Below, in pieces: positions 9,401 to 53,168 of a stretch of 64,000 nt of DNA. A program made the translations under genes and the position numbers. Source of the stretch: Carboxylicivirga linearis (GTDB lineage Bacteria > Bacteroidota > Bacteroidia > Bacteroidales > Marinilabiliaceae); contig NZ_JAGUCO010000001.1 of NCBI RefSeq assembly GCF_018271995.1, positions 716,180 through 780,179 on the forward strand, written 5' to 3'. How positions within the stretch are numbered: position 1 is the stretch's first letter; each line of letters starts with the position of its first letter. The notes beneath the pieces were generated by a model. That model worked only from the letters and a program-made list of their open reading frames with translations. It made no database searches and was not told the origin of the DNA.

Positions 9401-9522
9401 CAATGTATGGATCAATGGCAGTAACCATCATTTTTGGTCTTCTGTTCGCCACATTCCTTACATTATTGGTATTGCCACTGTTGTATGTATTGTTTTATAA
9501 AATCAAACCTGAAAACAATTAA
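6475..9522 (+). CDS. RND-family efflux permease (AcrB-like)
   Basis: This 1015-residue proton-driven pump of the AcrB/HAE1 type has about 12 membrane helices in two homologous halves and two large periplasmic domains. The proton-relay region of the TM4 equivalent reads GMLVDNAIVV: the first Asp (about residue 400) is kept and the second Asp of the usual DD pair is Asn. The TM10 lysine is kept in LKNAIVMMDE (about 923). The Asn variant is, from memory, a recurring subfamily form. Substrate cannot be deduced. The gene sits between the adaptor and a crotonase-like gene, with 5-9 bp gaps, clearly in one operon. Confidence 0.95.
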   Translation: MNLAEYTLKNRVFVYFILALVLIGGVVSYFKVGKLEDAEFTIKTALVVTRYPGASQYEVEQEVTEKLERAAQQMDNIDEIYSSSYAGLSIIQLDLKESMRANQMPQEWDILRKKINDARGELPMGAQAPMVIDDFGDVYGMFYALTGDGYSQDELNDYARFIKRELLTVNQIGKIILFGDRMECVDLIINHEKLSELGINPGVIIQAINNQSTVATSGTIQLDALNIRVAGNTAFQSIDDIKNTIVQVGDVQFYVKDLVEVNKSYIEPVQSMQRFNNQQSVGIGISTINGGNVLEMAEDINAKLELVEEQLPVGLELHTIYDQAREVENANNVFIVNLIESIAIVIIILLVSMGLRSGILISSGLLFAILGTLVAMKAFNISLHRTSLSAIIIAMGMLVDNAIVVTDGILVALQRGLNLRKSIVNVGKTTAWPLLGATFIAILAFLPVFLAPNSAGEINEDLFKVLAISLGLSWIFAMSQTPLVCERFLKPGKEVTNPYGGKGYRIFKNVLETILKYRKLSLGALMLMLVISIVAFGFTKKAFFMPLEKNYTLVDYWLPEGSNLYKVSEDLSEIETYLLDSVPQVKNVSTSIGQTPPRYMLSAQTQNYNSGFGQLMIETHELDEVAEVNDIVQNTIAQKYPNARLRIKGYIGGPPIEYKVEARFIGPDPAVLRDLADQAEKIFHEEPMCGDVTNDWRNEVLVWEPQYAEAKAARAGITRSDLGGAILSATSAGLPIGLYRDNDVMRPIVLKTDESAQNNLERIANSMVWGRNSNEPVPLKDVVDHPIKVNFENSVIQRYNRQRAITVQCDPLDPEVSGSTLMSKVGAKIEAIPLPAGYSFMWDGEYKPSMEANEATGTYMPVAMLLIVLIVVMLFNSIRQSLIVMAIIPLSIIGVSAGLFLTGKAFGFMAITGFLGLIGMVLKNAIVMMDEINLNLNKENSRPYDAVVDAAISRMRPVLLAALTTIFGMFPLITDAMYGSMAVTIIFGLLFATFLTLLVLPLLYVLFYKIKPENN

Positions 9523-9527
9523 TAGTC

Positions 9528-10307
9528 ATGACTCAATTTTTAAATAATCCATATTATCAATCAGAACAAAAAGGGAGTATTCTCTTCTTGCGATTGAATT
9601 ATTGTCTTTTTCTCGAGAGCAAAACCTATGAGTATCGTGATGGATTAATCGACATGCTCGATAAAGTATCGAAAGATGAAACTGTCAAATCAGTTGTGAT
9701 AAGTAATGATCATCCTAATTTTTCATTGGAGAGTTATCAACAAGTGTGGCACTCATTTTTTAAGGATAAAAATTACGAAGAAAAGGTTTTGCGAAGCTTT
9801 AGAGTTTTCGACTTGTTGGTGTTGAAGTTATTTGCATTGAAAAAAGTGGTTGTTTCGATGTTGGTAAAACCAATGAATGCTTTTCTTTTCAATTTTAGTT
9901 TTATTGCTGATTTAAGAATTGTATCCAAAGATTTTTATCTCGACAATAACAATGTTGATATGGTTAATATTCCCAAAGGAAGTACAATGCATAAGCAGTT
10001 TATCAATGCAACTATTAATCCAATCAATGTTTATTTTCTGTCGGACAAGATTTTTCCTGATGTTTTATCGAAGCATAATATGGTCGATCGAGTGTTTAAT
10101 CCCGAGGAGTTGAACGAACGCTCAGAATCGTTGGTGCAACGTTTCGAAAATGTGCACTATGCTGAAATTGAAGCGGCAAAAATGACTAAGTCTGCTGATA
10201 ATTTCGAGGGGTTTGAAAATTTGCTTCAGCAGGAAAATACTTTTCTGTTATCGTGTATCAGAGAGAAATTTAATGAGTCATCTCAGAAAATTCAACGTTT
10301 CCAATAA
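9528..10307 (+). CDS. Crotonase-like (enoyl-CoA hydratase/isomerase superfamily) protein in the efflux operon
   Basis: This 259-residue protein resembles the crotonase fold: an SVVISNDHPNFSLES strand-loop near residues 57-72, an FSFIADLRIVSKDFYL segment near 124-140 and a helical C-terminus. The glycine-rich oxyanion-hole motif of active enoyl-CoA hydratases is not seen (the matching stretch reads KPMNAFLFNFSFIADLR), and no obvious catalytic Glu pair can be placed. It may be a non-catalytic or substrate-binding relative. It starts 5 bp after the pump gene and ends 13 bp before the channel gene, so it is co-transcribed with both. Its role in efflux is unknown; family assignment is moderate. 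Confidence 0.6.
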   Translation: MTQFLNNPYYQSEQKGSILFLRLNYCLFLESKTYEYRDGLIDMLDKVSKDETVKSVVISNDHPNFSLESYQQVWHSFFKDKNYEEKVLRSFRVFDLLVLKLFALKKVVVSMLVKPMNAFLFNFSFIADLRIVSKDFYLDNNNVDMVNIPKGSTMHKQFINATINPINVYFLSDKIFPDVLSKHNMVDRVFNPEELNERSESLVQRFENVHYAEIEAAKMTKSADNFEGFENLLQQENTFLLSCIREKFNESSQKIQRFQ

Positions 10308-10320
10308 ATTAAAAATCATA

Positions 10321-11658
10321 ATGTTAAAATATAGTTTCACAATAGTTTTCTGTTTCATTGCCTATGTGGCAATGGGGCAGGAGGTACTAACGCTCGATAG
10401 CTGTCGACACAAGGCTTTGGAGCACAGCCAGAATGTGAAGACAGCCGAAGCGGATTACTCCATTAGCAAAGCTTCGCATAAACTAAGTAAATTAGGGCGC
10501 TTACCGCAGTTCGATTTTTCGGCTACCTATAATTATATGAATAAACCTCAGATAATGGAGATTCCAGGATTTGAATTGCCAACGCTAGGAGGCTTGCCAA
10601 GTGGAGTTTATTATCCGGGTGGAGTAACTAACCTGACATATCATAACAATTATAGTGGAGGTGTCGATTTAAGTTTGCCACTTTATTTGGGTGGTAAATT
10701 AAGGCATTACGTTAAAATGTCGGAGTATGGAGTTGGTATGGCAGAGCATAATCTTACCAATACAAAAGAAAACCTCATTCTTCAGGTTGATCAGCAATAT
10801 TGGGCATTGGTTTCTTTAAAAGAAAATCTGAATGTTTTGAACAAGGCTGTTAAGATGCTTGAAGGAGTAGTAACGCAAACTCAGAACTGGGCTGATGTTG
10901 GTTTGTTAACAGGTAATGAAGTATTGAAGGTAAAAGTTGAGCTAAATAACGCTAAGTTATCAGTAATTAATCTGAACAATAATATATCGTTAGCCAAAAT
11001 GGCATTAAATCAAACCATGGGCAAAAGTATTTTGGATGATATTGTTGTGGAAGATTCGGTAGTTATAGCCAGCGACTCGCCGGTTATGGTTGCTGATATT
11101 GAACAAAAAGCAGAAGAACGCCATGAGTTACAGATTTTGGCAAATCAGGTAAATATCAGTGAAGAAGACAGAAAGGCTGTGCGATCAGATTATTTGCCTC
11201 AACTGGTTTCGTTTGCCAATTATGGATTTCAAAATCCAAACCATAAGGCACAAGACGAAACAGAAATGGCTTTTGTGGCAGGTGTGAGTGTTTCAATACC
11301 TGTTTTTCATTGGGGTGAACGTCATGTGAAGATGCAAATGAAAAATATGGAAAGTCAGAAAGCACAGTTAACTTATGATAAAGCGAAAGAAGGATTAATT
11401 CTCGAAATTCAACAATGTGTTTATCAAGTGAACGAGTCGTTGGTGAAGATTGATTTTACCGAGGAATCATTAGAGCAAGCAGATGAAAATTTACAAATGG
11501 AGCTTAATAGATTAAATGAAGGTATAGTTACAACGACTGATGTTTTGGATGCTCAAGTGCAGTGGCAAAGGGCTTATGCCGATTTTATCGACTCTAAAGT
11601 AAATTACAAAGTAAATCTCCTTCATTATAAAAAGGTAATGGGGAGTCTTAATTATTAG
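10321..11658 (+). CDS. TolC-family outer-membrane efflux channel
   Basis: This 445-residue outer-membrane factor has a signal peptide (residues 1 to about 19, ending AYVAMGQ) and two OEP repeats: long helical pairs such as LILQVDQQYWALVSLKENL and LSYDKAKEGLILEIQQ-like stretches. The common late motif LNEGIVTTTDVLDAQ, ahead of the final helices, is clear. ATG 10321 is chosen because it gives a proper signal peptide; the frame is open further upstream but would overlap the crotonase-like gene. It completes the tripartite pump. No convincing terminator follows directly; an inverted repeat lies 20 bp after the stop. Confidence 0.93.
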   Translation: MLKYSFTIVFCFIAYVAMGQEVLTLDSCRHKALEHSQNVKTAEADYSISKASHKLSKLGRLPQFDFSATYNYMNKPQIMEIPGFELPTLGGLPSGVYYPGGVTNLTYHNNYSGGVDLSLPLYLGGKLRHYVKMSEYGVGMAEHNLTNTKENLILQVDQQYWALVSLKENLNVLNKAVKMLEGVVTQTQNWADVGLLTGNEVLKVKVELNNAKLSVINLNNNISLAKMALNQTMGKSILDDIVVEDSVVIASDSPVMVADIEQKAEERHELQILANQVNISEEDRKAVRSDYLPQLVSFANYGFQNPNHKAQDETEMAFVAGVSVSIPVFHWGERHVKMQMKNMESQKAQLTYDKAKEGLILEIQQCVYQVNESLVKIDFTEESLEQADENLQMELNRLNEGIVTTTDVLDAQVQWQRAYADFIDSKVNYKVNLLHYKKVMGSLNY

Positions 11659-12272
11659 TTTTGATTGACTTAATGATAATCCATTATTTCTGACGTATTA
11701 AACACCCGAAAATCTGTTTTACAACATTTTTTGTCTTCTTAATGCGTTTTTTACTTCCGAAATAATGGATTAATCTATACATTGTGACGCGTTTTTCGGA
11801 ATGTAATAACACGATTATTTTTTAACGGTGTTTCTGAATAACGAAGTATTTACTCTTGAAATAAGATCCAAATCTATAAAATCAATTAGTATATTTTCAC
11901 TACTGAAAAAATTTAGAATTATGCATAAAGAGCTCCGGTTGTCAGATAACAAGAATTTCTTTAAGGGAGTGCAGAAAGCTAAAGAAGGTGTGGTTTATTG
12001 AAGAATTCTTCGATAGAACAATGAAAAAACAATTGATGTTTATTAATCTGCCTGCATACATTTCAGAAATGTTTCAAAATGGAATTAGTTTTCTTATTTG
12101 CCGGGAATTATGCGTAAAAGCAACTCCTGTTTATTTACTATTTTATAAAAATGCAAATAATGGTTTCTAACTTTTTTGTTTGTTTTTAATGTATTGGAAA
12201 TGAGTAGTGTTGTGATTTTAATTAGTAATGGGGAGTCAGTTGATTAAAACAACTGCTTTTAAAATATAAATT
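11659..12272. other. 614-bp gap before the ATPase operon
   Basis: No convincing gene was found. The left part holds a long imperfect inverted repeat (11675-11774, listed separately). A 26-codon frame at 11921-12001 and a 60-codon frame near 11988 lack recognisable features. Just before the ATPase start, CAGTTG-N7-CAACTG (12237-12255) forms a small hairpin in the likely leader. No clear TAnnTTTG promoter was identified. Confidence 0.5.
11675..11774. repeat. Imperfect inverted repeat, about 100 bp
   Basis: AATCCATTATTTC (11678-11690) is exactly complementary to GAAATAATGGATT (11759-11771). Pairing continues outward to GAT/ATC with a one-base bulge, and inside by a weaker GTATTAA/TTAATGC pairing. 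It could be a long RNA hairpin ending the efflux operon, or a small MITE-like remnant. No T run follows. Confidence 0.45.
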
Positions 12273-41099: not shown

Positions 41100-43199
41100 A
41101 TGGATTTAGTAATCCCAAAAACCAGAATTCCTCAGTTATTTCTGTTTGTACTTTTCCTTTGTGTCTCAACACATATTACTGCACAAAACGATCAAGCCAA
41201 TGAGTTACTTAGCAGGTTGAAAAATGCTTCAACCAAAGAGCAGGTTGACATTTACAATCAGTTATCAAAAACTTATTTGTATAACGACCCGCAAATGGCT
41301 ATTAAATATGCTAGGCAGGCATTGCAGTTAGCCCTTCAATTGAAAGATAAAAGAGGAGAAGCTGAAGCCTATAACAATCTGGGTATGGGTTATTATTTTG
41401 TAAATGATTATGAACAGTTACTAGCATCTTACCGTAAATCGTTGAGTTCATATCGAGATATTGGTGATGACAGAAGTATCACAATGCTCTCATCAACTTA
41501 CTTCAGATTAAAGCAATCAGAGAAAGCGTTAAAGAGTTATAAACGTTCGCTAAATCTATATATTAAGGACAAAGATTGGATTAAAATAGCTGAGACCTAT
41601 AAAAAAATGGCTGATGTTTATAAGAATATTGCCGATTACAGAATGGCTCTTTCCTATTATAAACAAGCACTAGATTTGGTGGAAGATGGTGAGGGTGAAG
41701 ATGCTCAGGGTGATAGAGTTATATTGTTAGGTGAGATAGCAGAGATTTTCTTCTATCAAGAGCAATATGATACAGCATTGGTTTATTATCATCGGATGGA
41801 ATCAATCCTTAATGAATTAGGTGACCACCGAAGCAAATCCATTCTATTAAGCAATATTGCTAATGCCTATTTCTATAAAGGCGATTTGGATGAGTCCTTC
41901 AAATCCTATCAAAATGTATTAAAATATCAAATAGAGAATAATGAACATTGGGAGGCAGCCATGAGCCTTTTAAATATAGGGATGATTTATTCACGAAGAG
42001 GTGATTATAATAATGCGATTAAAAGTCATAAGAAAAGCTTAGCGGTGGCTCAAAGTATTGAGAAAGCAAATGATTTAATACGAGATAACTATTTAGCTCT
42101 TTCACAAATTTATGAAGAGTTGAAGGACTTTAAAAAAGCATATCAATACCGAATAATGTACTCCAAGTTGTCGGAATCATTAATGATGGAGGAGAATGTG
42201 AGTAATTTTGTAGATGTATTGGGTTTGCAGGAGCTGGAAGAAAAGAAAAAAGAAAATGAAATTCTTCAGGCTAAAAACAAGAATTATCTGCTTGAGTTAG
42301 AGAAAGAGAATTTGGTGCGATGGAGATTGTTGTTTGGATCCACAATTTTGATCATTTCAATCTTGGTTTTCGTTATTTATTATCGGTATTACTTAAAAAG
42401 AGAAGAAAATAAAAATCTTGAGAAACGAATTGCAGAGGCTCTTAAAAAGCAGGAAGAGCAACAGCAAATAATTATGCATCAATCTAGTTTAACTTCGTTA
42501 GGAGAGTTGGCTGCCGGAATAGCTCATGAGATTAACCAACCTATGCAAAATATCTCTTTGTCAACAGAAAGTATTAAGTACGAGTTAGCTGAATCTACTC
42601 CAAATAAAGGATTTATCAATCAGTCTGTTGAAGAAATTTTCGAAGATATTGTCAGAGTAAGGCAAATTGTTGATCACATTCGAATTTTTAGTAGTGGGCA
42701 AAAAGATGAAGTTGAAGAAGAATTTAATGTTAGTGAATGTGTAAGAAATGCTGTTTCAATGATAGGAAACCAATATGCCAATCACCATATTAAATTGCGC
42801 CTTGATCTGATTGATTCAATTCCATTAGTATTGGGTAATCCTCACAGGTTGGAACAGGTTATTCATAATCTTTTATCTAACGCCCGTGATGCAGTTGAAG
42901 AGAGGAGATTAGCGGAGGAACAACTACAAATGGAGGTTGCCATTAGAACACATACTGATCAAAAACAGGTTTATCTCGAAATTGCTGATAACGGAATAGG
43001 TATACCAGCAAACCGGAAGACTGATATTTTTTTACCTTTTGTTACCAGTAAGCAATTGGGCAAAGGAACGGGCTTAGGCTTATCAATTTCTTATAGTTTG
43101 ATAAAAGAGATGAATGGTCGTATTGAGGTCGAAAGCGAACATGGAGAAGGAACCCGAATGATTGTTGTACTTCCAGTCTTTAAAAAACGAATGGATTAA
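41100..43199 (+). CDS. TPR-containing sensor histidine kinase
   Basis: This 699-residue kinase begins with a signal peptide or signal anchor (residues 1 to about 28, ending THITAQ). A periplasmic array of tetratricopeptide repeats follows (about 35-385; for example AEAYNNLGMGYYFVNDYEQLL). One membrane helix (about 406-428) and a short coiled coil lead to a HisKA-like domain with GELAAGIAHEINQPMQNI. The HATPase domain has NLLSNARDAVEE, LEIADNGIGIP and GKGTGLGLSISYSL. The LGELAAGIAHEINQPL type of H-box is common in kinases paired with NtrC regulators, and the next gene, 10 bp downstream, is one. Confidence 0.95.
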   Translation: MDLVIPKTRIPQLFLFVLFLCVSTHITAQNDQANELLSRLKNASTKEQVDIYNQLSKTYLYNDPQMAIKYARQALQLALQLKDKRGEAEAYNNLGMGYYFVNDYEQLLASYRKSLSSYRDIGDDRSITMLSSTYFRLKQSEKALKSYKRSLNLYIKDKDWIKIAETYKKMADVYKNIADYRMALSYYKQALDLVEDGEGEDAQGDRVILLGEIAEIFFYQEQYDTALVYYHRMESILNELGDHRSKSILLSNIANAYFYKGDLDESFKSYQNVLKYQIENNEHWEAAMSLLNIGMIYSRRGDYNNAIKSHKKSLAVAQSIEKANDLIRDNYLALSQIYEELKDFKKAYQYRIMYSKLSESLMMEENVSNFVDVLGLQELEEKKKENEILQAKNKNYLLELEKENLVRWRLLFGSTILIISILVFVIYYRYYLKREENKNLEKRIAEALKKQEEQQQIIMHQSSLTSLGELAAGIAHEINQPMQNISLSTESIKYELAESTPNKGFINQSVEEIFEDIVRVRQIVDHIRIFSSGQKDEVEEEFNVSECVRNAVSMIGNQYANHHIKLRLDLIDSIPLVLGNPHRLEQVIHNLLSNARDAVEERRLAEEQLQMEVAIRTHTDQKQVYLEIADNGIGIPANRKTDIFLPFVTSKQLGKGTGLGLSISYSLIKEMNGRIEVESEHGEGTRMIVVLPVFKKRMD

Positions 43200-43209
43200 A
43201 ATTATCTGA

Positions 43210-44607
43210 ATGCAAATTATGAACGAACTAAAAGTGTTGATTCTTGATGATGAATCAAGAATTACTGAAAAGCTGAAATATCATCTGGAGAAACGAAATT
43301 TTAAGGTTACCACGGCTAATACCCCTAAAGAAGGATTAGAAAAGTTGCATGAAGAGAAACCTGGAGTTTTAATATTGGATGTGATGTTACCCGGTATGAA
43401 TGGGTTGGATATTTTGGAAAAAGTAAAAGCTGAATACCCCAATCTTGAAATTATCATGATAAGTGGATATGGCGATATGGACATGGTTATTCAGGCAATG
43501 CGTAAAGGGGCTTCAGATTTTATTCGCAAACCATTTCAGATAATGGATATTCAGCTGGCCATTGAACGTACCGAAAAGTTCTTGATGATGCAATCTAAAC
43601 TGACTGAAGCAGAAGATCGAGAAGTACTGGTTTCAAAAGAACTGGAAAGTATGATTGAAAAGGATTTTATTGGCGATAGTCCTCAAATCAAACAAGTTCT
43701 TAAAATGGCATTGAAAGCTGCTGAAGATGGCGATGTTAATGTGTTAGTGACCGGTGAGAATGGAACAGGAAAAGAGATTATATCCCGAATTATTCATTTT
43801 GGAAGCCCGCGTAAAAAGAAAGTATTTGCACCTGTAAATAGTTCTGCGATACCTGCTACCCTATTGGAGAGTGAGTTTTTTGGACATGTTAAAGGGGCTT
43901 TTACCGATGCCAAAGAAGAAAAGAAAGGGTACTTTGAATTGGCAAATAAAGGAACACTTTTTTTAGATGAAATTGCTGATATGCCCTATTCCTTGCAGGC
44001 TAAATTACTTAGAGCCATTGAAGAGAATAAAATAAAGAGAGTGGGAAGTAATCAAGAGATTCCTGTAGATGTTCGTATTATTTCAGCGACCAATAAAAAT
44101 ATTGAACAACTGATAGATGACAATAAATTCAGAATTGATTTATTTCATCGGATCAACACTATTGAGATAAATATTCCTCCTCTTCGTGAAAGGAGAGAAG
44201 ATATCCGCCCATTACTAAATCATTTTGTAGAGAGTTTTGCCCGTAAGAAAGGAAAGACTAAGCCTGGAATTTCCGAAGCGTTGGTTTCTAAATTGGAACG
44301 ATATCACTACCCTGGTAATGTACGTGAATTGCGGAATATGGTTGAACGAGCCATGATATTATCGGATAATGATACTTTACAACCCGATGATTTTCTGATA
44401 AAAGAAGATAGTCATGCAAAAACAGATAAATCGGTACCGATTGGAGGTCTTAATTTGGATGATAATGAGAAGCTACTGATAGAGCAAGCTTTAAAAGAAA
44501 CGGATCTGAATCAGACAAAAGCTGCTACATTATTAGGTATCAGCCGTGATGCAATGAAACGTAAAATAAAGAAATTTGGTATTGAAATAGTAAGGGATCT
44601 GCAATAA
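43210..44607 (+). CDS. NtrC-family sigma-54-dependent response regulator
   Basis: This 465-residue regulator has a receiver domain (phospho-Asp about 57 in LILDVMLPG), a sigma-54 AAA+ domain with Walker A GENGTGKE and Walker B GTLFLDEIAD, and a Fis-type HTH (NQTKAATLLGISRDAMKRKI). The loop that contacts sigma-54 reads GAFTDA instead of the usual GAFTGA. It follows its cognate kinase by 10 bp. An ATG at 43219 (MNELKVLILDDE) is an equally good start. Targets are unknown; sigma-54-like promoters occur elsewhere in this window. Confidence 0.95.
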   Translation: MQIMNELKVLILDDESRITEKLKYHLEKRNFKVTTANTPKEGLEKLHEEKPGVLILDVMLPGMNGLDILEKVKAEYPNLEIIMISGYGDMDMVIQAMRKGASDFIRKPFQIMDIQLAIERTEKFLMMQSKLTEAEDREVLVSKELESMIEKDFIGDSPQIKQVLKMALKAAEDGDVNVLVTGENGTGKEIISRIIHFGSPRKKKVFAPVNSSAIPATLLESEFFGHVKGAFTDAKEEKKGYFELANKGTLFLDEIADMPYSLQAKLLRAIEENKIKRVGSNQEIPVDVRIISATNKNIEQLIDDNKFRIDLFHRINTIEINIPPLRERREDIRPLLNHFVESFARKKGKTKPGISEALVSKLERYHYPGNVRELRNMVERAMILSDNDTLQPDDFLIKEDSHAKTDKSVPIGGLNLDDNEKLLIEQALKETDLNQTKAATLLGISRDAMKRKIKKFGIEIVRDLQ

Positions 44608-44645
44608 AAAAAAGCCCCATTCGAAACGTTTCTCGAATGGGCTCT
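44606..44645. terminator. Bidirectional terminator between convergent genes
   Basis: AGCCCCATTCGA and TCGAATGGGCT pair with a one-base bulge. On the minus strand the hairpin is followed by eight T and would end the hydrogenase operon well; on the plus strand the tail is weaker. Confidence 0.8.
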
Positions 44646-44684: not shown

Positions 44685-46139
44685 CTATTTCATTGCGGGC
44701 TCTGGAGCTAATTCATCCATCACCTTCTGCAAATTGTTTTGGCTGAAGCCATGAGTAGCAATATTACCCGGACCACTTATACAGCCTCCTTCGCAAGCCA
44801 TAACTTCAATAAAATCGAAGTTGGGTTCTTTTTTTGTGTAAGCTTTTAAAAGCTTAATGCTTTTCTTATTTAATCCATTAATTATATGGGTTCTAATTTG
44901 TGCATCTTTATTGAGGTTAAGCAGAATAGATTGATGCACACCTCCAGAAGCGGCAAATCCCCTGTTTTGAGGTTTCAGTTGTTGATTCACTATTTCAGAA
45001 TCAGTAAAAGAGGTCGGGTCAATTTGCAAAGCCGTCCAAATGGATCCTAATTCTTCAGTTGTGATAACAAAATCAACCAAACCAGAAATATATGCTTCTT
45101 GTCTTTTAGCCAGGCAAGGGCCGATAAATACCGTAGCATGATCAGGATAAGTTTCCTTGGCTTGTTTAGCCGTAAAGTACATTGGTGTTGGAGTGTGGCT
45201 AATATGCTCTTTTAATTTAGGCAGATGCTTTTCAGCCAATGAAACGTAAGCAGGACAGCAAGAGGTTGTCATAAACGGTTTTTGCTGATTTATGTTTTCC
45301 ATTAATTCTTTTGTTTCCTCCTGGGTAGTAACTTCAGCTCCTTCGGCTACCTCAACTACTTTATCGAAACCAATTGACTTTATCGCTTCTAATATTTGAC
45401 TACTCGATGCTTTGTACTGGCTTAAAACAGCTGGAGCAACCAAAGCAACCATTTTTTGTTTCTTTAATTTTAAAGTATTATAGAAATGAAGTATCTGAGA
45501 TTTTTCAGCAATGGCACCAAACGGACACGAGGTCATACATTTACCACAATGTATGCATTTGTCGAAGTCAATTTTCTCAATTCCATATTCATCTTTTCTA
45601 ATAGCCTTTACCGGACATGATTCTTCACAAGGAACAGGTAAGTAGGCAATTGCATGAAAAGGGCATGCTTTCTGACATAATCCACAGTTCACGCATTTAT
45701 GGTGGTCGATATTAGCTTTACCATTAATAACTGTTATGGCATCTTTAGGACAATTTACCTGGCATGGTCGACCTTCACATCCCTGACAGAGATTACTTAC
45801 AGTGTAATTTACCTGCACACACGAACTACAAGCCTCATCAACAACCGTTAAAAATTCTCCGTTTGAATCAATCCCTTCAATAGCCTTCAATGCATAATCG
45901 CGTAAAGGTGTTAATTCATCTTCTTCATCGCTGATGTTAAATCCCATTGCTGCCATTAATTTGTATTTGATCACGGCGCGATCTTTATGAACGCAGCACC
46001 GAATAGGAGCTTTGGTTTTAGGGCGCATGTCTAATGGAATTCGGTCGATGTGTTCAAACAGTTGATTGGAATCAAGCAATTGAATCAATCGAATTAATAA
46101 TTCCCTTTTGGTTCTGACAGCGTTGTTGAAATAGGTCAT
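44685..46139 (-). CDS. Monomeric [FeFe]-hydrogenase, group-B-like
   Basis: This 484-residue enzyme has an N-terminal region with IRCCVHKDRAVIKYK, an array of Fe-S cysteine motifs (residues about 104-205: CSSCVQ, CQGCEGRPCQVNC, CVNCGLCQKACP, CEESCP and CIHCGKCMTSCP), and an H-cluster domain. The H-cluster motifs are TTSCCPAYV (Cys294, Cys295), FIGPCLAKRQE (Cys342) and VMACEGGCISGPG (Cys449, Cys453), so all four ligands and the proton-transfer Cys are kept. The layout resembles group B enzymes thought to make or use H2 with ferredoxin. No hydE, hydF or hydG maturase gene is in the window. It is the last gene of the operon, 28 bp after the phosphatase gene. Confidence 0.9.
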   Translation of the reverse strand: MTYFNNAVRTKRELLIRLIQLLDSNQLFEHIDRIPLDMRPKTKAPIRCCVHKDRAVIKYKLMAAMGFNISDEEDELTPLRDYALKAIEGIDSNGEFLTVVDEACSSCVQVNYTVSNLCQGCEGRPCQVNCPKDAITVINGKANIDHHKCVNCGLCQKACPFHAIAYLPVPCEESCPVKAIRKDEYGIEKIDFDKCIHCGKCMTSCPFGAIAEKSQILHFYNTLKLKKQKMVALVAPAVLSQYKASSSQILEAIKSIGFDKVVEVAEGAEVTTQEETKELMENINQQKPFMTTSCCPAYVSLAEKHLPKLKEHISHTPTPMYFTAKQAKETYPDHATVFIGPCLAKRQEAYISGLVDFVITTEELGSIWTALQIDPTSFTDSEIVNQQLKPQNRGFAASGGVHQSILLNLNKDAQIRTHIINGLNKKSIKLLKAYTKKEPNFDFIEVMACEGGCISGPGNIATHGFSQNNLQKVMDELAPEPAMK

Positions 46140-46167
46140 TTGTTATATAAGTTGATTTTGGTTCTAT

Positions 46168-47355
46168 TTATAAGTATTCGATAGTTACCGATTTTAAAAA
46201 CTTGTTCTCAAGGGTATGGGCTATCTTTTTAATTACATTTCTTCTTATTTCGAGTTCTACAGGAAGATTAGGATCCTGATGCGCATTGTTTATCTGAGTT
46301 CCTGCCAATATTAGAATAGAATCGCTTGTTAATAATAACCGAACCATATCCTCTGCGGGACCATGGCCTTCAACTACATTTAATTTAGTTTTCTCCAGAA
46401 GAGCAGAAACTTTGCCCAAGGTTAAAATTCCTTCGGTAATTAAATCCACACCTTCCATACTTGCTTCAGGAGGTAAATCAAGTTGATTGTTGCTGATTTT
46501 TACTTCTACCGGTCGGTTTAATTCGCGCGATATTATTTTAGATGTGGTTCCTCCGCATATTATTTTCTTTCCCTCGAAGGTGGCAAGTCTTTCTGCCATC
46601 ACACTATCGTAGTTTTTGTAATATGGAGGCCCGGATGCTAATACTAATTTTCTGGGTTCGCGACAGTAAACTACCTGACAAGTAGCATCGTCTTTTAATT
46701 GATTGGCATCATTGGCTTTGGCTCGATCTAAGATCTTACTTGCCAGTTGATGGGCTGATATCGCAGGTTTATCTTCAATGGTATTTGTAATGAATTCTTT
46801 TAGTCCTATCTCTCCCCACCCTGATGGATGAACTCTTGTGCCCATTCCGGATTGGGTAATGCCATCTGATACAATAACGATGCGATCTTCCTTCTCTAAC
46901 TTCAGCCTTGAAGTTTTCACTATGGCCTCTATCTGGTCTGGTCTGTTTATTTTAAGATTTGTATATGTCAGATCTATAAAGTGTCCATCTCGGTAAATAA
47001 GAACACCAGGATTATCATATTCAACCAAATGAGCTTCGCCAGAACAATTGATATCAATAATGCTAAATGTTGAATAACTCATTTTACGCTCAGGATCAAT
47101 CGGTAGGGTACGCATTATAAATTCAGAGGCGTGCTCCAATGAATTATTTTGTGATGTAAACTGTAATGCCATACCGGTTGTCATGGTTGAAACAACATTG
47201 GCTTTAATTCCGGATCCCAATCCATCAGACAAAACCGTGATGAACCGGTCTTCATCCTTTATTTTGCGCGATTGGCATGAGTCGCCACAAACATTTTGCT
47301 TGTGTTTATTAGCCTGACAGGTTTCTGATTCTATGTAGAAATGTTTATTCTGCAT
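46168..47355 (-). CDS. SpoIIE-type PP2C phosphatase linked to sensory hydrogenase
   Basis: This 395-residue protein has a PP2C/SpoIIE phosphatase domain (residues about 35-235) with metal-binding motifs VLSDGLGSGIKA, IVSDGITQSG and DDATCQVV. Before it lies a cysteine cluster, Cys13, Cys23 and Cys27 (CQANKHKQNVCGDSC), which could bind a metal or react to redox change. The C-terminal 150 residues (ICGGTTSKIISRELNRPVEV and following) match nothing I recognise. The start overlaps the end of the hydS-like gene by 11 bp, so the two are translationally coupled. Such phosphatases are reported near sensory [FeFe]-hydrogenases. The phosphoprotein target is unknown. Confidence 0.88.
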   Translation of the reverse strand: MQNKHFYIESETCQANKHKQNVCGDSCQSRKIKDEDRFITVLSDGLGSGIKANVVSTMTTGMALQFTSQNNSLEHASEFIMRTLPIDPERKMSYSTFSIIDINCSGEAHLVEYDNPGVLIYRDGHFIDLTYTNLKINRPDQIEAIVKTSRLKLEKEDRIVIVSDGITQSGMGTRVHPSGWGEIGLKEFITNTIEDKPAISAHQLASKILDRAKANDANQLKDDATCQVVYCREPRKLVLASGPPYYKNYDSVMAERLATFEGKKIICGGTTSKIISRELNRPVEVKISNNQLDLPPEASMEGVDLITEGILTLGKVSALLEKTKLNVVEGHGPAEDMVRLLLTSDSILILAGTQINNAHQDPNLPVELEIRRNVIKKIAHTLENKFLKSVTIEYL

Positions 47356-49066
47356 CTTTCTTTTCCTGTGTTTCTAGAATTGAATTCAATAAAGAGTCGG
47401 TATAAGAGGCATTCTCTCCTAATAAAAGGGCAATTTTTTGTACCGTCTCCATATTTTTATTTATCACCTCGCGTGTTCTTTTCTCGATAATATCTTTTTG
47501 AAATTCGGGTTGAGCAACACTTTGCAGAATACCGGTAACCAGTTTGTGCTTTTGAACATTAAAGATGGATAGCTGAAGTTGCTTACCATTTTCTATAATA
47601 GGCATCTCGTAATATTCTTTACCGGTAAGTAAAGCCGTTTTAAACAAAGACCCAAAGGATCCAATTTTATCAATATGAGCACCTCTCATTCCTGGATTGG
47701 CATCGTAACATAGTTGAATATCCTCACCCAAAATACGGGCACAACCTGCATTCATTTCAACTACTTGATAAGCATCGTCTAAAACAATAACTCCTGAAGG
47801 AATTTTTTGTAATAGTATAGTGGCTTTATGATGTGCAACATGTCGCATATACGATACGCACATTTCTGGTTCGGCATGATTCTGCAACATGGCTTTTGCA
47901 AAATCTCTGCAACTGTCGTATCCGCATCCACTGCAGTTTAACTCATCACTAATTTCTGTTTTACCAATCGTATGCAGAGCTTCTTTAATTTGTTTTTCTG
48001 AGAAGCTTTTTTTGTCAAAGGATGGTATGTTAAAGAAATCTCTTTCAATGTTTAAACCTTGAATTTCTACAGTTTCAATATCTTCAGTACTCCTTTGTTT
48101 GCAGGTATTTCTTAAAGACAATTGTTTACTGATGGAAATCTTTTGATCAGACATGCCGGGACCATTAATACAGCCTGTTTCGCAAGCCAACAACTCCAGA
48201 AATACCAGATCGTCATTTTTTTCTGAATCCAGGTTGTCAAGTAAGTTTTTAATGTTTTTAAGTCCGCTAAAATACATGTATTCAGCCTTTGTGTCTGATT
48301 CCTTTTTGTTGATGGTCTCAATCATTCCACCATCTATTGGATAGATGGTTCCATGCTGCGCTTTTTGTGGAATGAAGGTTTCGCTATTACAGTTTAGTTG
48401 ATCATTTATGGAAATCTTTTCTTTCTCCAGCCAATTATTCAACTCCTTAAAAGTTAAAGCAACATCTATGCATTGAGCAGCCGAATCAGCTTCCGATTTT
48501 TTACCGATGCATGGACCAATAAATACAATGCCTATATCATTACCGTATAGATTCCTTAATTGCTTTGCATGAGTTAACATGGGCGACATAAAAGGGGTAA
48601 TGGATAATGAGTGTTGAGGATAATGCTTGCGAATTAGCTCAACAACCACAGGGCAGGCAGATGAGATATAAGTACCACCCTGCCTGATATTTAAAAACTG
48701 ATGAACTTGTTTTGAAACCTCCTGAGCGCCTAAGGCAGTTTCAGATACACCTTTGAATCCTAATTTTTTAATAGCTGATATTAGCGCTTCAGAGTTTGTT
48801 CCATATTCAGCAATATATGAAGGAGCTAATGATACGTATACCTCTTTTTTGTTTTTGATTAACAGTCGGGCTCGTGAAATACCATCTCTAACTTTCTTGG
48901 CTTGAGTAGGACAAACGGATACACAGCGGCCACAATACACGCACATTGAATCGATAATAGATGCCTTGTTATCGGTAACTTTAATTGCTTTGTTAGGGCA
49001 TTCTCTGATGCACTTATAGCAATCTTTACAATCGTTGGTTTCGGTGTATATGGGTTGTAAGTTCAT
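47345..49066 (-). CDS. Putative sensory [FeFe]-hydrogenase with PAS domain (HydS/group-C-like)
   Basis: This 573-residue protein has two 4Fe-4S motifs (CKDCYKCIRECP, CVYCGRCVSVCP; residues 13-52) and an H-cluster domain: SSACPVVV (Ala137, Cys138), FIGPCIGKKSE (Cys186) and LLACETGCINGPG (Cys295, Cys299). A further Fe-S motif is CSGCGYDSC...C (378-403), and a PAS domain lies at about 415-520. All four H-cluster ligands remain, but the proton-transfer Cys is Ala, as reported for Thermotoga maritima HydS. This favours H2 or redox sensing over turnover. It has no kinase or DNA-binding output; the coupled phosphatase gene is the likely output. First gene of the operon, behind a sigma-54-type promoter. 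Confidence 0.88.
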   Translation of the reverse strand: MNLQPIYTETNDCKDCYKCIRECPNKAIKVTDNKASIIDSMCVYCGRCVSVCPTQAKKVRDGISRARLLIKNKKEVYVSLAPSYIAEYGTNSEALISAIKKLGFKGVSETALGAQEVSKQVHQFLNIRQGGTYISSACPVVVELIRKHYPQHSLSITPFMSPMLTHAKQLRNLYGNDIGIVFIGPCIGKKSEADSAAQCIDVALTFKELNNWLEKEKISINDQLNCNSETFIPQKAQHGTIYPIDGGMIETINKKESDTKAEYMYFSGLKNIKNLLDNLDSEKNDDLVFLELLACETGCINGPGMSDQKISISKQLSLRNTCKQRSTEDIETVEIQGLNIERDFFNIPSFDKKSFSEKQIKEALHTIGKTEISDELNCSGCGYDSCRDFAKAMLQNHAEPEMCVSYMRHVAHHKATILLQKIPSGVIVLDDAYQVVEMNAGCARILGEDIQLCYDANPGMRGAHIDKIGSFGSLFKTALLTGKEYYEMPIIENGKQLQLSIFNVQKHKLVTGILQSVAQPEFQKDIIEKRTREVINKNMETVQKIALLLGENASYTDSLLNSILETQEKKDAE

Positions 49067-49163
49067 AGCTATTTTATCTTGAATACATGTTCTACCACGA
49101 TGAATTACAATATTGTGAATCGGCCTTTTTATCTATTATGAATTAGATATATGTTTTTTTTAT

Positions 49164-49179
49164 TGCGAAAGGTGTGCCT
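49164..49179 (-). promoter_or_regulatory. Sigma-54-type promoter of the hydrogenase operon
   Basis: Reading the minus strand, AGGCAC-ACCTT-TCGCA compares with TGGCAC-N5-TTGCA. The GG and GC doublets are 10 bp apart, as required. It lies 98 bp before the hydS-like start and downstream of three palindromes that fit enhancer sites. Confidence 0.6.
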
Positions 49180-49254
49180 ATAGTTGTAATGATCAGTACA
49201 TCAAGGAGAAAAGAAATGCTAAGGTGGAGCTGCTAAAAATGATATCTGTAATAA

Positions 49255-49321
49255 TGTCCTAAAGTAGGACAAATAAATATCAATAACGTACTAATATAGG
49301 ACAATGTCAGATAATAGGACG
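49255..49321. promoter_or_regulatory. Three enhancer-like palindromes (TGTCCTA-N3-TAGGACA)
   Basis: Site 1 (49255-49271) is perfect, TGTCCTAAAGTAGGACA. Site 2 (49287-49303) has an intact right half TAGGACA and a left half with two changes. Site 3 (49305-49321) keeps TGTC and TAGGAC and overlaps the activator's stop codon. Centres are about 110, 142 and 160 bp upstream of the start predicted from the sigma-54 promoter. Confidence 0.7.
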
Positions 49322-51091
49322 CTCTTTGACGAGGGGAATATTGTATGATTTAGCTTTTAAATACAATGTGTTTCTGCTGATTCCTAATGATTCTGCAGAT
49401 TTAGTAACATTATAATTAAAATGCGTTAAGGTATTTGTAATTAACTGCCGTTCCATTTCCTTAACTGTTCCTAAAAGAGTCGATTTTGAATCATCATCAG
49501 ACACATAAAGTTCGTCTGATTGAACTTTCTTTTGGTTCAATGTTAATTGATCAAACTCAATGTTACCGTCTAAATTGACATATTGCTCAATGGCATTCTC
49601 CAGTTCTCTGATATTACCTGGCCAGTTATAATTAAGAAACTGTTGTAGGGTTGAATACTTTAGTTGTGGAACATTCTTTTGAAGATGTATTGATTTTTTA
49701 TTCAGAAAGAAACGTATGAGCGAGGGTAAGTCTTCCATCCGTTCCGATAATGAAGGGATGCGTAAAGGAATAACGCTTAGCCTGTAATACAAGTCCAATC
49801 TAAACCGGCCTTCTTCCACTTCTTTCTTTAAATTTTTATTGGTAGCCGCAATAATCCGAACATCAACAGGTCTGTTTTTATTTCCTCCCAATCGCGTAAT
49901 GGCATTTTCCTGAATAGCTCGTAATAGCTTTACCTGCAGTTCTGGTTTCATATCACCAATTTCATCCAGGAATAAAGTACCTCCATTTGCCAACTCAAAC
50001 TTTCCGGGATGACCTCCTTTTTTAGCTCCTGTAAAAGCTCCGTCGTCGTAACCAAATAACTCACTTTCAATTAAGCTTTCGCTGATGGCAGCGCAGTTAA
50101 TAGCCACAAATCCATGGTCTTTTCTACTGCTTGCATTATGCATACTCTGTGCAAAAACTTCCTTACCGGTTCCGCTTTCCGCTTCAATTAAAACGGTTGA
50201 AGGACTATTGGCTATATTTTTAGCATATTCAACCAATTTACGCATCACCTTGCTTTTGGCAATAATATCGTTAAACGTAAACCGGGCCTGCATTCCGGTA
50301 TATTTGTTAACAAGGTTATATACATTTTCAAGCTTGCGAATAGTCAGTACCAAACCAATCAATTTTGATTGTGCCTGATTCATAATCGGACTAACGCTGA
50401 CATTATATTTTGCTATGCCATCGGATGTAGATATAGCTACTTCTTCATTAACAAACTTTTCTCCGGAACTAACTACCTTAAAAATATTTTTCCATTGCGA
50501 TACTAATTTTTGAATAGGTATGGTCAGCAAATCTCTTCGTCTGATATTGACCCAACGGCAGGCTAAATTATTGGCATAAAGAATCTCACCATTAGTATTA
50601 ACTGATAAAATACCAATACGCAAAGCATTCATCATGGCAAAAGTATACTGATTGGTGTCTTCTATCTTTTGCTGCATGGTTGCATCATGAAATTCAGCAT
50701 GAATAGCCTTTTCAATAGCAGCACTGGCAAAATTTAACCAGGTAAAGTCAATATCAAGAGATGAAATTAAATAAACACTAAAAGGTACTTCATGATCTTG
50801 TTGGTGACAACTAATAATATTATATGCTGCTGTAATTGTGGTAACAATTCCTTTGTGATGAGGCGAATCATTCCAATCGATTTTTTGCTCAAACTGATTC
50901 CAGTTTCTACCCTTAGTTAAATTTAAATCCGAATTTTTCTGACTTGAATAAGAAGCTGCAATTATATTTTGTCGATTCACTGCAACTAAATAAAAAAAGG
51001 TGTTTTTCATGCTACCGGAAAAATCATCAAGAACCTGATGTAACAAATGTAATCCGCTATCCTGACTATTGTTCGCTTTTACTTCCGGCAT
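49307..51091 (-). CDS. Sigma-54-dependent transcriptional activator of the hydrogenase operon
   Basis: This 594-residue AcoR-like activator has an N-terminal GAF-like sensor region (residues about 10-140), a PAS domain (about 150-260: ALRIGILSVNTNGEILYAN), a sigma-54 AAA+ domain (about 270-500) and a Fis-type HTH at the end (NVTKSAESLGISRNTLYLKA). The AAA+ domain has Walker A AESGTGKE, a canonical GAFTGA loop (YDDGAFTGAKKGG) and GTLFLDEIGD. It has no receiver domain, so it senses a signal directly or through a partner protein. Its gene ends among the three palindromes that precede the hydS-like operon, which makes it the obvious regulator of that operon. Confidence 0.93.
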   Translation of the reverse strand: MPEVKANNSQDSGLHLLHQVLDDFSGSMKNTFFYLVAVNRQNIIAASYSSQKNSDLNLTKGRNWNQFEQKIDWNDSPHHKGIVTTITAAYNIISCHQQDHEVPFSVYLISSLDIDFTWLNFASAAIEKAIHAEFHDATMQQKIEDTNQYTFAMMNALRIGILSVNTNGEILYANNLACRWVNIRRRDLLTIPIQKLVSQWKNIFKVVSSGEKFVNEEVAISTSDGIAKYNVSVSPIMNQAQSKLIGLVLTIRKLENVYNLVNKYTGMQARFTFNDIIAKSKVMRKLVEYAKNIANSPSTVLIEAESGTGKEVFAQSMHNASSRKDHGFVAINCAAISESLIESELFGYDDGAFTGAKKGGHPGKFELANGGTLFLDEIGDMKPELQVKLLRAIQENAITRLGGNKNRPVDVRIIAATNKNLKKEVEEGRFRLDLYYRLSVIPLRIPSLSERMEDLPSLIRFFLNKKSIHLQKNVPQLKYSTLQQFLNYNWPGNIRELENAIEQYVNLDGNIEFDQLTLNQKKVQSDELYVSDDDSKSTLLGTVKEMERQLITNTLTHFNYNVTKSAESLGISRNTLYLKAKSYNIPLVKERPII

Positions 51092-51308: not shown

Positions 51309-51407
51309 TATAAGTAAATGAACGCATCATTTCTTGGGGATATTGAGCCAGGAGTAATTAAAATATTACGCAAGTGATGCAAATAATAACCTTTAAATCA
51401 TTTGCCT

Positions 51408-52091
51408 ATGGAAGTAAAAAAAAGTAAAAAGGCTGACCTCGAACGAAAAAGGTCCATGTTTTTTCAGATAGGTTTAATTGTCACCTTAAGTGCCGTTTTT
51501 GTAGCATTTGAATGGACAACTTCTGATGTGGTAACTGCCGATACGGGATGGATAGAGGAAGAAGTGCTTGAAGAAGAAGCTCCTCCTATTACCCGACAAG
51601 AAGAGGTAAAACCACCTCCACCACCTCCACCACCAAAAATGTCTGATATAATTGAGATAGTTGATGATGATGTGGAATTGGATGAAGAGTTGGATATTGA
51701 AGATACAGAAATGGATCAGGAACTGGAAGTCGACCTTAGTCAGTTTGATTCATCCGAAGAAGAATCGGGAGATCCGATACCTTTTTTCATATTAGAGGAT
51801 AAACCGGAATTTCCGGGTGGCGAACAAGCTTTATTGAAGTTCTTGGCCAAAAACGTTAAGTACCCGGTTATTTGTCAGGAAAATGGCATACAAGGTATGG
51901 TTACAGTATCCTTTGTAATAGACGAAAAAGGTAAGGTTAGCAATGTAAAAGCAACTAGTGCACGCGATGCCAACTTAGAAAGAGAAGCGGTAAGAGTTGT
52001 GAAGCTAATGCCTGACTGGAAGCCCGGTAAACAGTGTGGGAGACCTGTAAAAGTAACTTACAGTGTACCCGTACGATTTAGATTACAATAA
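51408..52091 (+). CDS. TonB-like energy transducer, paralogue 1
   Basis: This 227-residue protein has a short cytoplasmic N-terminus (KKADLERKRSMFFQIG), one membrane helix (residues about 20-38) and an acidic, Pro-rich periplasmic linker with a run of eight prolines near residue 70. The C-terminal TonB domain spans about 135-227 (PEFPGGEQALLKFLAKNVKYP and VRFRLQ at the end). It passes proton-motive force from ExbB/ExbD to outer-membrane receptors; no exbB or exbD lies here. The paralogue 0.4 kb downstream shares the N-terminus and C-terminal domain. The ATG at 51408 is preferred over an upstream TTG. Confidence 0.92.
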   Translation: MEVKKSKKADLERKRSMFFQIGLIVTLSAVFVAFEWTTSDVVTADTGWIEEEVLEEEAPPITRQEEVKPPPPPPPPKMSDIIEIVDDDVELDEELDIEDTEMDQELEVDLSQFDSSEEESGDPIPFFILEDKPEFPGGEQALLKFLAKNVKYPVICQENGIQGMVTVSFVIDEKGKVSNVKATSARDANLEREAVRVVKLMPDWKPGKQCGRPVKVTYSVPVRFRLQ

Positions 52092-52487: not shown

Positions 52488-53168
52488 ATGAAAGTAAAAA
52501 AATATAAACACGCCGATTTAGAACGCAAGCGTTCCATGTTTTTTCAAATAGGTTTAATTGTTGCTTTGGCAGCTTCGCTTGCTGCATTTGAATGGAGCAC
52601 AGAAGAAGTCTTAGTTCCTGAAGATTTGGCTGGGCAAATAGATCCATACGAAGAAGACTTGATTTTACCAGAGAACATAAAACTAGAAGAAAAACAGCCC
52701 CAGCCAGTTCAGCCACAAAAGATTTTGGAACCTATTATTAAAGAAACAAATAATAATGATCCGAATGCCGGGGAGATGAACTTTTCATCAGAAGATTGGC
52801 CCGAGGTTCCGGTTGACATTCCTGAACTACCAGACGAGCCTGTTGAAGATAATTCGGTTTACATCTTTGTAGAGAGAATGCCTGAACCTCCCGGAGGAAT
52901 GAAGGGCCTGATGAAGTATTTTGCTGAAAATATCAGGTTTCCGGTTATTTGTGCAGAATTAGGAATTGAAGGAAGAGTGTACGTTGGGTTTGTTGTGGAT
53001 AAGGATGGTAGTGTTACCGATGTTAAGGTTCTTCGAAGCCCTGATGCAAATTTATCGAAAGAAGCTATTAGAGTAGTTCAAAACATGCCAGCCTGGAAAC
53101 CGGGTAGGCAAGGTGGAAAACCTGTTAAGGTATCGTATACCGTTCCTGTAAACTTTAAATTACAATAG
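52488..53168 (+). CDS. TonB-like energy transducer, paralogue 2
   Basis: This 226-residue protein is the paralogue of the gene at 51408. Its N-terminus, KHADLERKRSMFFQIGLIV, is nearly identical to that of paralogue 1, followed by one membrane helix, an acidic linker with Gln/Pro (KQPQPVQPQKI) in place of the polyproline run, and a C-terminal TonB domain (about 132-226: PEPPGGMKGLMKYFAENIRFP). The divergent linker and conserved ends suggest duplication followed by change in reach or partner receptor. It has its own palindrome and promoter-like element, so the two genes may be separate but co-regulated units. Confidence 0.92.
   Translation: MKVKKYKHADLERKRSMFFQIGLIVALAASLAAFEWSTEEVLVPEDLAGQIDPYEEDLILPENIKLEEKQPQPVQPQKILEPIIKETNNNDPNAGEMNFSSEDWPEVPVDIPELPDEPVEDNSVYIFVERMPEPPGGMKGLMKYFAENIRFPVICAELGIEGRVYVGFVVDKDGSVTDVKVLRSPDANLSKEAIRVVQNMPAWKPGRQGGKPVKVSYTVPVNFKLQ

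What the first reader, a model, noticed from the sequence alone, without database searches (positions are those of the whole stretch)
44685..51091. Two different [FeFe]-hydrogenases, a PP2C phosphatase and a sigma-54 activator in one circuit
Seen: a group-B-like hydrogenase with all H-cluster ligands and the proton-transfer Cys, a HydS-like hydrogenase with a PAS domain, and a SpoIIE phosphatase whose gene overlaps the HydS-like gene, all on one strand behind a sigma-54 activator gene. Known: group C hydrogenases are considered sensory and often lie near PP2C phosphatases. Inference: the HydS-like protein senses H2 or redox state, the phosphatase is the output, and the activator and group-B enzyme close a feedback loop. 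The complete circuit in a Bacteroidota with an in-cis sigma-54 activator may be undescribed.
Basis: partly seen in the sequence, partly recalled or inferred. Interest (0 to 1): 0.75.

Follow-up and report, generated by a model that had tools for sequence, protein, structure and literature searches.

The report
σ54 switch driving hydrogen-sensor hydrogenase operon
This Bacteroidota genome carries, side by side, the gene of a hydrogenase of the kind thought to sense hydrogen gas, a protein phosphatase gene and a second hydrogenase gene that likely serves hydrogen release, and in front of them lie three spaced repeats and a σ54-type promoter sequence, so the neighbouring regulator gene is predicted to switch them on, which would make the control of fermentative hydrogen release testable in this phylum.

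Summary
On the minus strand lie a PAS-containing σ54 activator (49307-51091), hydS (47345-49066), a SpoIIE/PP2C phosphatase overlapping it by 11 bp (46168-47355) and a group B [FeFe]-hydrogenase (44685-46139). Maturases HydE, HydF, HydG and σ54 are in the genome. The hydS-spoIIE-hydB core is not new: Ruminococcus albus plasmid pRUMAL01 has the same order (32%, 31%, 38% identity), and a review reports its hydA2 transcript 90-fold lower beside an H2 consumer. I saw no report of the control layer: between activator and hydS sit three TGT-N11-ACA-type sites spaced 18 and 32 bp, then a σ54-type promoter 92 bp on. The triplet recurs in 19 of 22 related loci with the activator in cis and 3 of 57 without (shuffled expectation 0 and 0.05); in 13 fresh loci the link is weaker (2 of 3, 3 of 10). 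It resembles the layout of AdhR, the clostridial activator of alcohol dehydrogenase; in four other loci the sites precede an Fe-alcohol dehydrogenase gene at the head of a longer gene row ending in hydS. Best reading: an AdhR-like σ54 input switches on a hydrogen-disposal operon whose HydS-phosphatase pair likely reports H2. A closed loop onto the activator is not supported.

The parts
49307..51091 (-). sigma-54-dependent activator, AdhR/DhaR-like: N-terminal region of GAF-like predicted fold, PAS, AAA+ (GAFTGA), Fis-type HTH
   Evidence: Pfam (no GAF hit); motifs; model of residues 1-272 best matches DhaR(N) 4lrx
49305..49321 (-). candidate enhancer (UAS) site 1, CGTCCTATTATCTGACA, overlaps the activator's stop codon
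49287..49303 (-). candidate enhancer site 2, TGTCCTATATTAGTACG, 18 bp after site 1
49255..49271 (-). candidate enhancer site 3, TGTCCTACTTTAGGACA, 32 bp after site 2; best match of this palindrome in the own genome (one mismatch)
49164..49179 (-). candidate sigma-54 -24/-12 promoter AGGCACACCTTTCGCA, 92 bp after site 3
   Evidence: C and A of GGCA in 25 of 25 loci compared (GG was required by the scan). By consensus alone it is no better than chance
47345..49066 (-). hydS: sensory-type [FeFe]-hydrogenase, group C-like (two N-terminal 4Fe-4S, H-cluster domain, C-terminal FeS, PAS), Ala at the proton-transfer position
46168..47355 (-). SpoIIE/PP2C-type phosphatase with a conserved C-terminal domain (about residues 234-395) without a listed fold match
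44685..46139 (-). hydB: monomeric group B [FeFe]-hydrogenase, 38% identical over residues 34-405 to the hydrogenase after hydS-SpoIIE on the R. albus plasmid
44616..44641 (-). intrinsic-terminator-like hairpin after hydB (11 pairs, then a T run)

Best explanation
The locus is a gene row hydS-spoIIE-hydB, likely one operon, that starts behind three spaced TGT-N11-ACA-type sites and a sigma-54-type promoter sequence next to the gene of a PAS-AAA+-HTH activator; that activator is predicted to bind the three sites and switch the row on, and HydS likely senses H2 and would pass the signal to the SpoIIE phosphatase while HydB would release excess reductant as H2. Shown by sequence: the genes, their overlap and spacing, the terminator-like hairpin, the three sites, the promoter sequence, their recurrence with the activator gene, and maturases and sigma-54 in the genome. 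Inferred: co-transcription, binding of the activator, its signal (a fermentation signal of the AdhR or DhaR kind), H2 sensing by HydS (from R. albus and Thermoanaerobacterium work), and the phosphatase's substrate, which is probably not the activator but another phosphoprotein that sets the H2/alcohol/NADH balance.
For: Order kept in 18 of 18 close loci and widely beyond. Enhancer triplet (>= 16 of 18 core bases, spacing 18 and 32-34) in 19 of 22 loci with cis activator against 3 of 57 without, one too short dropped, shuffled expectation 0.0 and 0.05; an earlier criterion gave 18 of 22 against 2 of 54, four too short dropped, Fisher p 1e-11 uncorrected for kinship. Promoter 80-92 bp after site 3 in 22 of 25 loci, regions of four of them chosen by hand. 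Best genome match of the palindrome is this site. AdhR of C. beijerinckii: GAF, PAS, three UAS of the TGT-N10-12-ACA type, each needed for normal activity (PMC7017808, PMC6615313; passages). Sites and promoter precede Fe-ADH at the head of the row in L105 (ADH, NfnA/B-type, Rex-like, then hydS), L136 (ADH), L209 (ADH, Nfn) and L210 (ADH, Rex-like). R. albus: rex, adhE, hydS, SpoIIE, hydrogenase in one row; hydA2 transcript 90-fold lower beside an H2 consumer (PMC10838669, passage). hfsB deletion raises ethanol and adhE transcript, rex tracking ethanol (PMC5707799, passages).
Against: No expression, binding or H2 data for this organism. In 13 fresh loci the link is weaker: triplet in 2 of 3 with cis activator and 3 of 10 without; two of those three (L204, L206, one genus) have it at the start of a longer row. 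Of 11 Fe-ADH loci among the 80 only 3 have the activator in cis, and 7 have neither activator nor triplet, so the alcohol link does not depend on it. Palindrome halves do not covary significantly (p 0.06 and 0.09 at best). The window promoter has two mismatches, at chance level by itself. Pfam finds no GAF in the window activator; that reading rests on a model of pLDDT 79.6. In the group D enzyme TamHydS the C-terminal cluster was found unresponsive to H2 (PMC13104023, abstract), which leaves the signalling path of HydS open.
Confidence: 0.6

Rival explanations
1. Closed loop: the HydS-controlled phosphatase (or HydS itself) acts on the activator's sensor half, as partner proteins act on DhaR by contact, so H2 feeds back on transcription of the row itself.
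For: The activator's sensor half is predicted to fold best like DhaR(N), solved in complexes with DhaK and DhaL; regulatory regions with Fe_hyd_lg_C, Fer4 and FeS domains are reported among sigma-54 activators of Clostridiales (PMC6615313, passages), so a hydrogenase-type domain can feed a sigma-54 activator directly.
Against: 48 of the 70 loci with at least 2.5 kb upstream show no activator in cis; the sensor half of the activator varies strongly (20-79% identity to the window in 19 others).
Confidence: 0.18
2. HydS is not a sensor but a low-rate redox enzyme or electron-transfer subunit, once served by two thioredoxin-like ferredoxins, and the phosphatase regulates something else.
For: Two small thioredoxin-like [2Fe-2S] genes flank hydS and hydB in most relatives (first in 68 of 80 loci, second in 47 of 53 with hydB and room downstream).
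Against: Both are missing beside hydS in the window genome and two sister species while hydS and the phosphatase stay; HydS has a PAS-like part and a conserved C-terminal end next to a PP2C gene; R. albus transcripts and hfsB genetics point to regulation.
Confidence: 0.15
3. The promoter is of the housekeeping kind and the activator serves other genes; the neighbour relation is inherited synteny.
For: Flanking genes are syntenic in much of the genus; 16 sigma-70-like matches lie in the region, though fewer than in shuffles (25.5).
Against: In L057 the four genes keep their order without the usual flanks; no better enhancer match elsewhere in the own genome; triplet and promoter move with the head of the row in L105, L136 and L209.
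Confidence: 0.07

Closest known systems
Ruminococcus albus 7 pRUMAL01 hydS-spoIIE-hydA2 row (with rex, adhE and two 2Fe-2S ferredoxin genes upstream)
   Same: Same order hydS, SpoIIE phosphatase, group B hydrogenase (TIGR04105 577 bits); 32%, 31% and 38% identity, phosphatase C-terminal part included. That its hydrogenase is HydA2 follows from PMC10838669 (HydA2 and HydS one unit on this plasmid, passage)
   Different: No sigma-54 activator annotated and no enhancer triplet in the 7 kb before hydS (best 13 of 18); rex and adhE in cis; ferredoxin genes kept; Cys where window HydS has Ala137
Thermoanaerobacterium hfsABCD
   Same: HfsB has a PAS domain and is likened to HydS, HfsC resembles serine phosphatases, HfsD resembles HydA2 (PMC11837493, passages)
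   Different: Extra hfsA; sequences not compared here; no sigma-54 control mentioned in the passages seen
AdhR of Clostridium beijerinckii, sigma-54 activator of Fe-alcohol dehydrogenases
   Same: PAS-AAA+-HTH, three UAS of the TGT-N10-12-ACA type before a sigma-54 promoter (PMC7017808, PMC6615313, passages)
   Different: Target in the window is hydS-spoIIE-hydB; no close Fe-ADH in the genome (best 34%); GAF not recognised by Pfam; spacing of AdhR's sites not seen; orthology to AdhR not tested
Group B [FeFe]-hydrogenase of gut bacteria
   Same: Same hydrogenase group (TIGR04105); paper reports it as the main driver of gut H2 (PMC12578642, start of abstract and passages)
   Different: The passages seen describe no regulator for it

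Membership tests
HydS, sensory group C [FeFe]-hydrogenase | H-cluster cysteines and two N-terminal 4Fe-4S clusters | tested here: met
   Cys 13, 16, 19, 23, 42, 45, 48, 52, 138, 186, 295, 299 invariant in 16 orthologues
HydS, sensory group C [FeFe]-hydrogenase | C-terminal 4Fe-4S domain followed by PAS (PAS marks group C against D, PMC13104023, passages) | tested here: met
   PF04060 E 2.4e-9; PAS_8 in 15 of 16 orthologues at E <= 1, the window protein itself 0.017 and under the cut-off
HydS, sensory group C [FeFe]-hydrogenase | H2-dependent signalling | not testable with these tools
   needs protein
Group B [FeFe]-hydrogenase | TIGR04105 over its cut-off | tested here: met
   508.2 bits, cut-off 450
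R. albus-type hydS-spoIIE-hydA2 row | gene order and homology of all three products | tested here: met
   the hydB alignment covers residues 34-405 of 484
R. albus-type hydS-spoIIE-hydA2 row | rex, adhE and 2Fe-2S ferredoxin genes in cis | tested here: not met
   not between activator and hydB in the window
R. albus-type hydS-spoIIE-hydA2 row | transcript level follows H2 | not testable with these tools
   needs RNA from cultures
AdhR-type sigma-54 activator | three UAS of TGT-N10-12-ACA before a sigma-54 promoter | tested here: met
   16 of 18 core bases, the first site starts CGT and the second ends ACG
AdhR-type sigma-54 activator | GAF plus PAS sensor half | tested here: inconclusive
   PAS met, GAF not found by Pfam; model resembles DhaR(N); GAF found in L105 and L140, not in L130 or L059
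AdhR-type sigma-54 activator | alcohol dehydrogenase as target | tested here: not met
   best Fe-ADH in own genome 34% identical, none behind the sites; met in L105, L136, L209, L210
AdhR-type sigma-54 activator | sequence orthology to C. beijerinckii AdhR | not tested
   that sequence was not fetched
hfsBCD | sequence homology of products | not tested
   likeness taken from passages

The most novel reading that the evidence does not exclude
Some Bacteroidota run a hydrogen-versus-alcohol fork as one sigma-54 regulon: an AdhR-like activator drives, from a fixed three-site enhancer, either a long operon (Fe-alcohol dehydrogenase, Nfn, Rex, hydS, phosphatase, group B hydrogenase) or, in Carboxylicivirga, its trimmed hydrogen-only form, and the HydS-phosphatase pair tells the activator's sensor half about H2 by contact or dephosphorylation, much as partner proteins control DhaR.
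Probability: 0.18. Interest if true: 0.8.

Novelty: new variant of a known kind. Interest (0 to 1): 0.55.

Why it matters
Group B hydrogenases are reported as the main H2 producers of the gut, and that paper calls for understanding what drives the varying hydrogenase expression (PMC12578642, passages); how HydS-type sensors signal is unproven. This locus puts sensor, phosphatase, enzyme, a σ54 activator and its candidate enhancer into 6.4 kb with a sharp, cheap test (three sites, one promoter, one activator). The company of alcohol dehydrogenase and Rex in R. albus and in several Bacteroidota loci points to one redox-disposal switch.

Tried and rejected
Rejected: a σ54 promoter by consensus alone (15 matches in the window, 14.6 expected). 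Rejected: the palindrome match near hydE (C159:27481, 3 mismatches), which lies inside an open frame of 686 codons. Rejected: a wider regulon in the own genome by this palindrome; 19 matches against 41 for the reversed control, only the window site with one mismatch. Rejected: palindrome covariation as evidence (not significant). Rejected: the convergent TPR-kinase and NtrC-type regulator (41100-44607) as the cis activator, since it lies on the other strand behind the terminator and its distance to hydB varies. Led nowhere: a fold match for the phosphatase C-terminal domain; the 50 hits listed are described as PP2C-type phosphatases, their complexes or related signalling proteins. PDB sequence search of HydS found catalytic hydrogenases, ferredoxins and other Fe-S proteins, no entry named as a sensory hydrogenase. 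A phosphatase substrate was not searched for.
Full report
Observation. Domain searches give a group B hydrogenase (508.2 bits, cut-off 450), a SpoIIE phosphatase, a HydS-type hydrogenase with a C-terminal FeS domain, and a PAS-AAA+-HTH σ54 activator. HydS keeps sixteen cluster cysteines and has Ala137 at the proton-transfer position in the 16 orthologues aligned. PAS is weak in the window protein (0.017) and clearer in orthologues (15 of 16 at E <= 1). hydS and spoIIE overlap by 11 bp, spoIIE and hydB are 28 bp apart, and a terminator-like hairpin follows hydB at 44641-44616. The genome holds six Fe_hyd_lg_C proteins; the other four are in one cluster on C92.

Distribution. In 60 genomes searched (own included; 39 have some match, many only a distant paralogue of about 30% identity) I read full-length orthologues in 14 of 14 of the genus, 5 of 22 of the rest of the family and 1 of 24 of the rest of the order. 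A wider even draw gave 18 of 247 genomes of the order, own included, one of them a partial match. Several records of the genus are named Carboxylicivirga, others only Marinilabiliaceae or Saccharicrinis; NCBI places Carboxylicivirga in Marinilabiliaceae. hydS-spoIIE-hydB is in 18 of 18 loci of genus and family, the activator in 17 of 18 (one contig ends); of two further loci fetched, L060 (order) has activator, hydS and spoIIE but no hydB hit, and L061 is no close orthologue. One scan of named genomes kept the best 80 of 520 relatives: SpoIIE is next to hydS in 78 of 80, hydB follows in 53 of 73 with at least 3 kb downstream, a HydABC-type gene is found instead in 8, and 12 have neither.

Missing ferredoxins. 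In most relatives a thioredoxin-like [2Fe-2S] gene (PF01257, two examples tested) precedes hydS and another precedes hydB. In the window genome and two sisters (G001, G006) both are missing there: leaders of 181-240 bp where the other loci with a full leader have 420-516, and spoIIE-hydB gaps of 26-35 bp where most have 250-298 (the order locus L060 aside); the second gap is also short (31-65 bp) in four other loci. Own-genome PF01257 matches lie on C92, C104 and C169.

Control region. Between activator and hydS lie three sites, 49321-49305, 49303-49287 and 49271-49255, spaced 18 and 32 bp, the first over the activator's stop codon, and 92 bp on a GGCAC promoter element at 49179-49164. Leaders of the relatives align on the same elements. 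I tested this in the 80 loci. With a first criterion (two sites of 10 of 14 at a fitting spacing) 18 of 22 loci with a cis activator pass and 2 of 54 without, four too short dropped. With only the TGT/ACA cores and the full triplet (16 of 18), 19 of 22 against 3 of 57, one dropped. The motif came from the window and its near relatives, so near loci are not independent; further out L105, L108, L117, L130, L136, L140, L142 and L151 pass the second criterion and L126 fails; L087 and L093 fail among the nearer ones. Of the three without activator, L134 has under 1 kb upstream and L131 has its triplet before an Fe-ADH gene. In 13 further loci 2 of 3 with cis activator pass and 3 of 10 without; L204 and L206, of one genus, have the triplet before an Nfn-hydS row, so an activator elsewhere would be needed there. 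The two palindrome halves do not covary significantly.

Longer rows. In L105, L136, L209 and L210 the activator is followed by triplet and promoter-like sequence and then an iron alcohol dehydrogenase gene, directly in L105, L209 and L210 and after one more gene in L136; NfnA/NfnB-type genes (L105, L209) and a Rex-like gene (L105, L210) lie between it and hydS. The names rest on Pfam for L105 only (Fe-ADH; Fer4_20 with Pyr_redox_2; CoA_binding, with the Rex-type N-terminus just under its cut-off) and on BLAST to those for the rest. Within 9 kb before hydS, Fe-ADH is in 11 of 80 loci, Nfn in 10 and Rex-like in 16; only 3 of the 11 Fe-ADH loci have the activator in cis and 7 have neither activator nor triplet. 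R. albus has rex, adhE, a phosphotransferase, two ferredoxins, hydS, SpoIIE and the group B hydrogenase in one row.

Proteins. The phosphatase model (pLDDT 87) has a PP2C part like SpoIIE (5mqh, 5ucg) and a C-terminal domain (about 234-395) without a match of its own among the 50 hits listed; this part is conserved in the 34 sequences aligned and in R. albus, so it goes with HydS-linked phosphatases. The activator's first 272 residues (pLDDT 79.6, pTM 0.52) match the sensor half of DhaR best (TM 0.57). That DhaR(N) is a GAF-PAS pair is recalled.

Literature, all from an open-access library. AdhR: disrupting any of three UAS severely impairs σ54 promoters of two ADH genes (PMC7017808, passages; PMC6615313, passages). 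HydS work: R. albus hydA2 transcript 90-fold lower beside an H2 consumer (PMC10838669, passage); hfsB deletion raises ethanol and adhE transcript (PMC5707799, passages); hfs proteins (PMC11837493, passages); TamHydS C-terminal cluster unresponsive to H2 (PMC13104023, abstract and passages). Group C3 genes lie by A3 hydrogenases in Hydrogenedentota (PMC11406978, passages). A σ54 survey names NiFe-hydrogenase and formate-hydrogenlyase genes but no [FeFe]-hydrogenase in the passages seen (PMC12316311). Zheng et al. 2014 was not read, only met as a citation. In the listings of searches I saw no paper on σ54 control of a hydS operon in Bacteroidota; most subscription papers are not in that library.

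Mechanism. I commit to an AdhR-like σ54 input on a hydrogen-disposal operon, with HydS-SpoIIE as a separate H2 reporter whose target lies elsewhere. Shown: anatomy, recurrence, layout. Inferred: co-transcription, binding, signal, H2 sensing, target.

Noticed in passing
L007:8234-10033 (own genome C92): A HydABC-type HydA (NADH-dependent A6 by NCBIfam) reads TTSCSPGW where its neighbour in L008 reads LTSCCPGW, i.e. Ser at a cysteine position of the H-cluster motif.
   Followed up: no
L007:10526-12385 (own genome C92): A second HydS next to a SpoIIE gene has SSKCP and FYCKGCIMGPG, a shortened third H-cluster motif; 8 of 9 related loci scanned carry FYCEGCIMGPG, so the altered site is conserved.
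   Followed up: partly
46171-46656: C-terminal domain of the HydS-linked phosphatase (about residues 234-395) with conserved GGTT, EGILT and NxAHQDPNLP-like stretches, no Pfam hit and no listed PDB match.
   Followed up: partly
41100-44607: TPR-containing histidine kinase and NtrC-type response regulator, convergent to the operon; kept in synteny in many relatives.
   Followed up: partly
49067-49306 and 46140-46167: Both thioredoxin-like ferredoxin genes of the ancestral-looking row are missing in the window genome and two sister species.
   Followed up: partly
51402-52091 and 52488-53168: Two similar neighbouring genes, TonB-like by eye, divergent from the activator.
   Followed up: no
L126:4707-7598 and 8953-11876: Two hydS-spoIIE pairs in a row; L107, L111, L118 and relatives pair the window-type with the C92-type HydS.
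   Followed up: no
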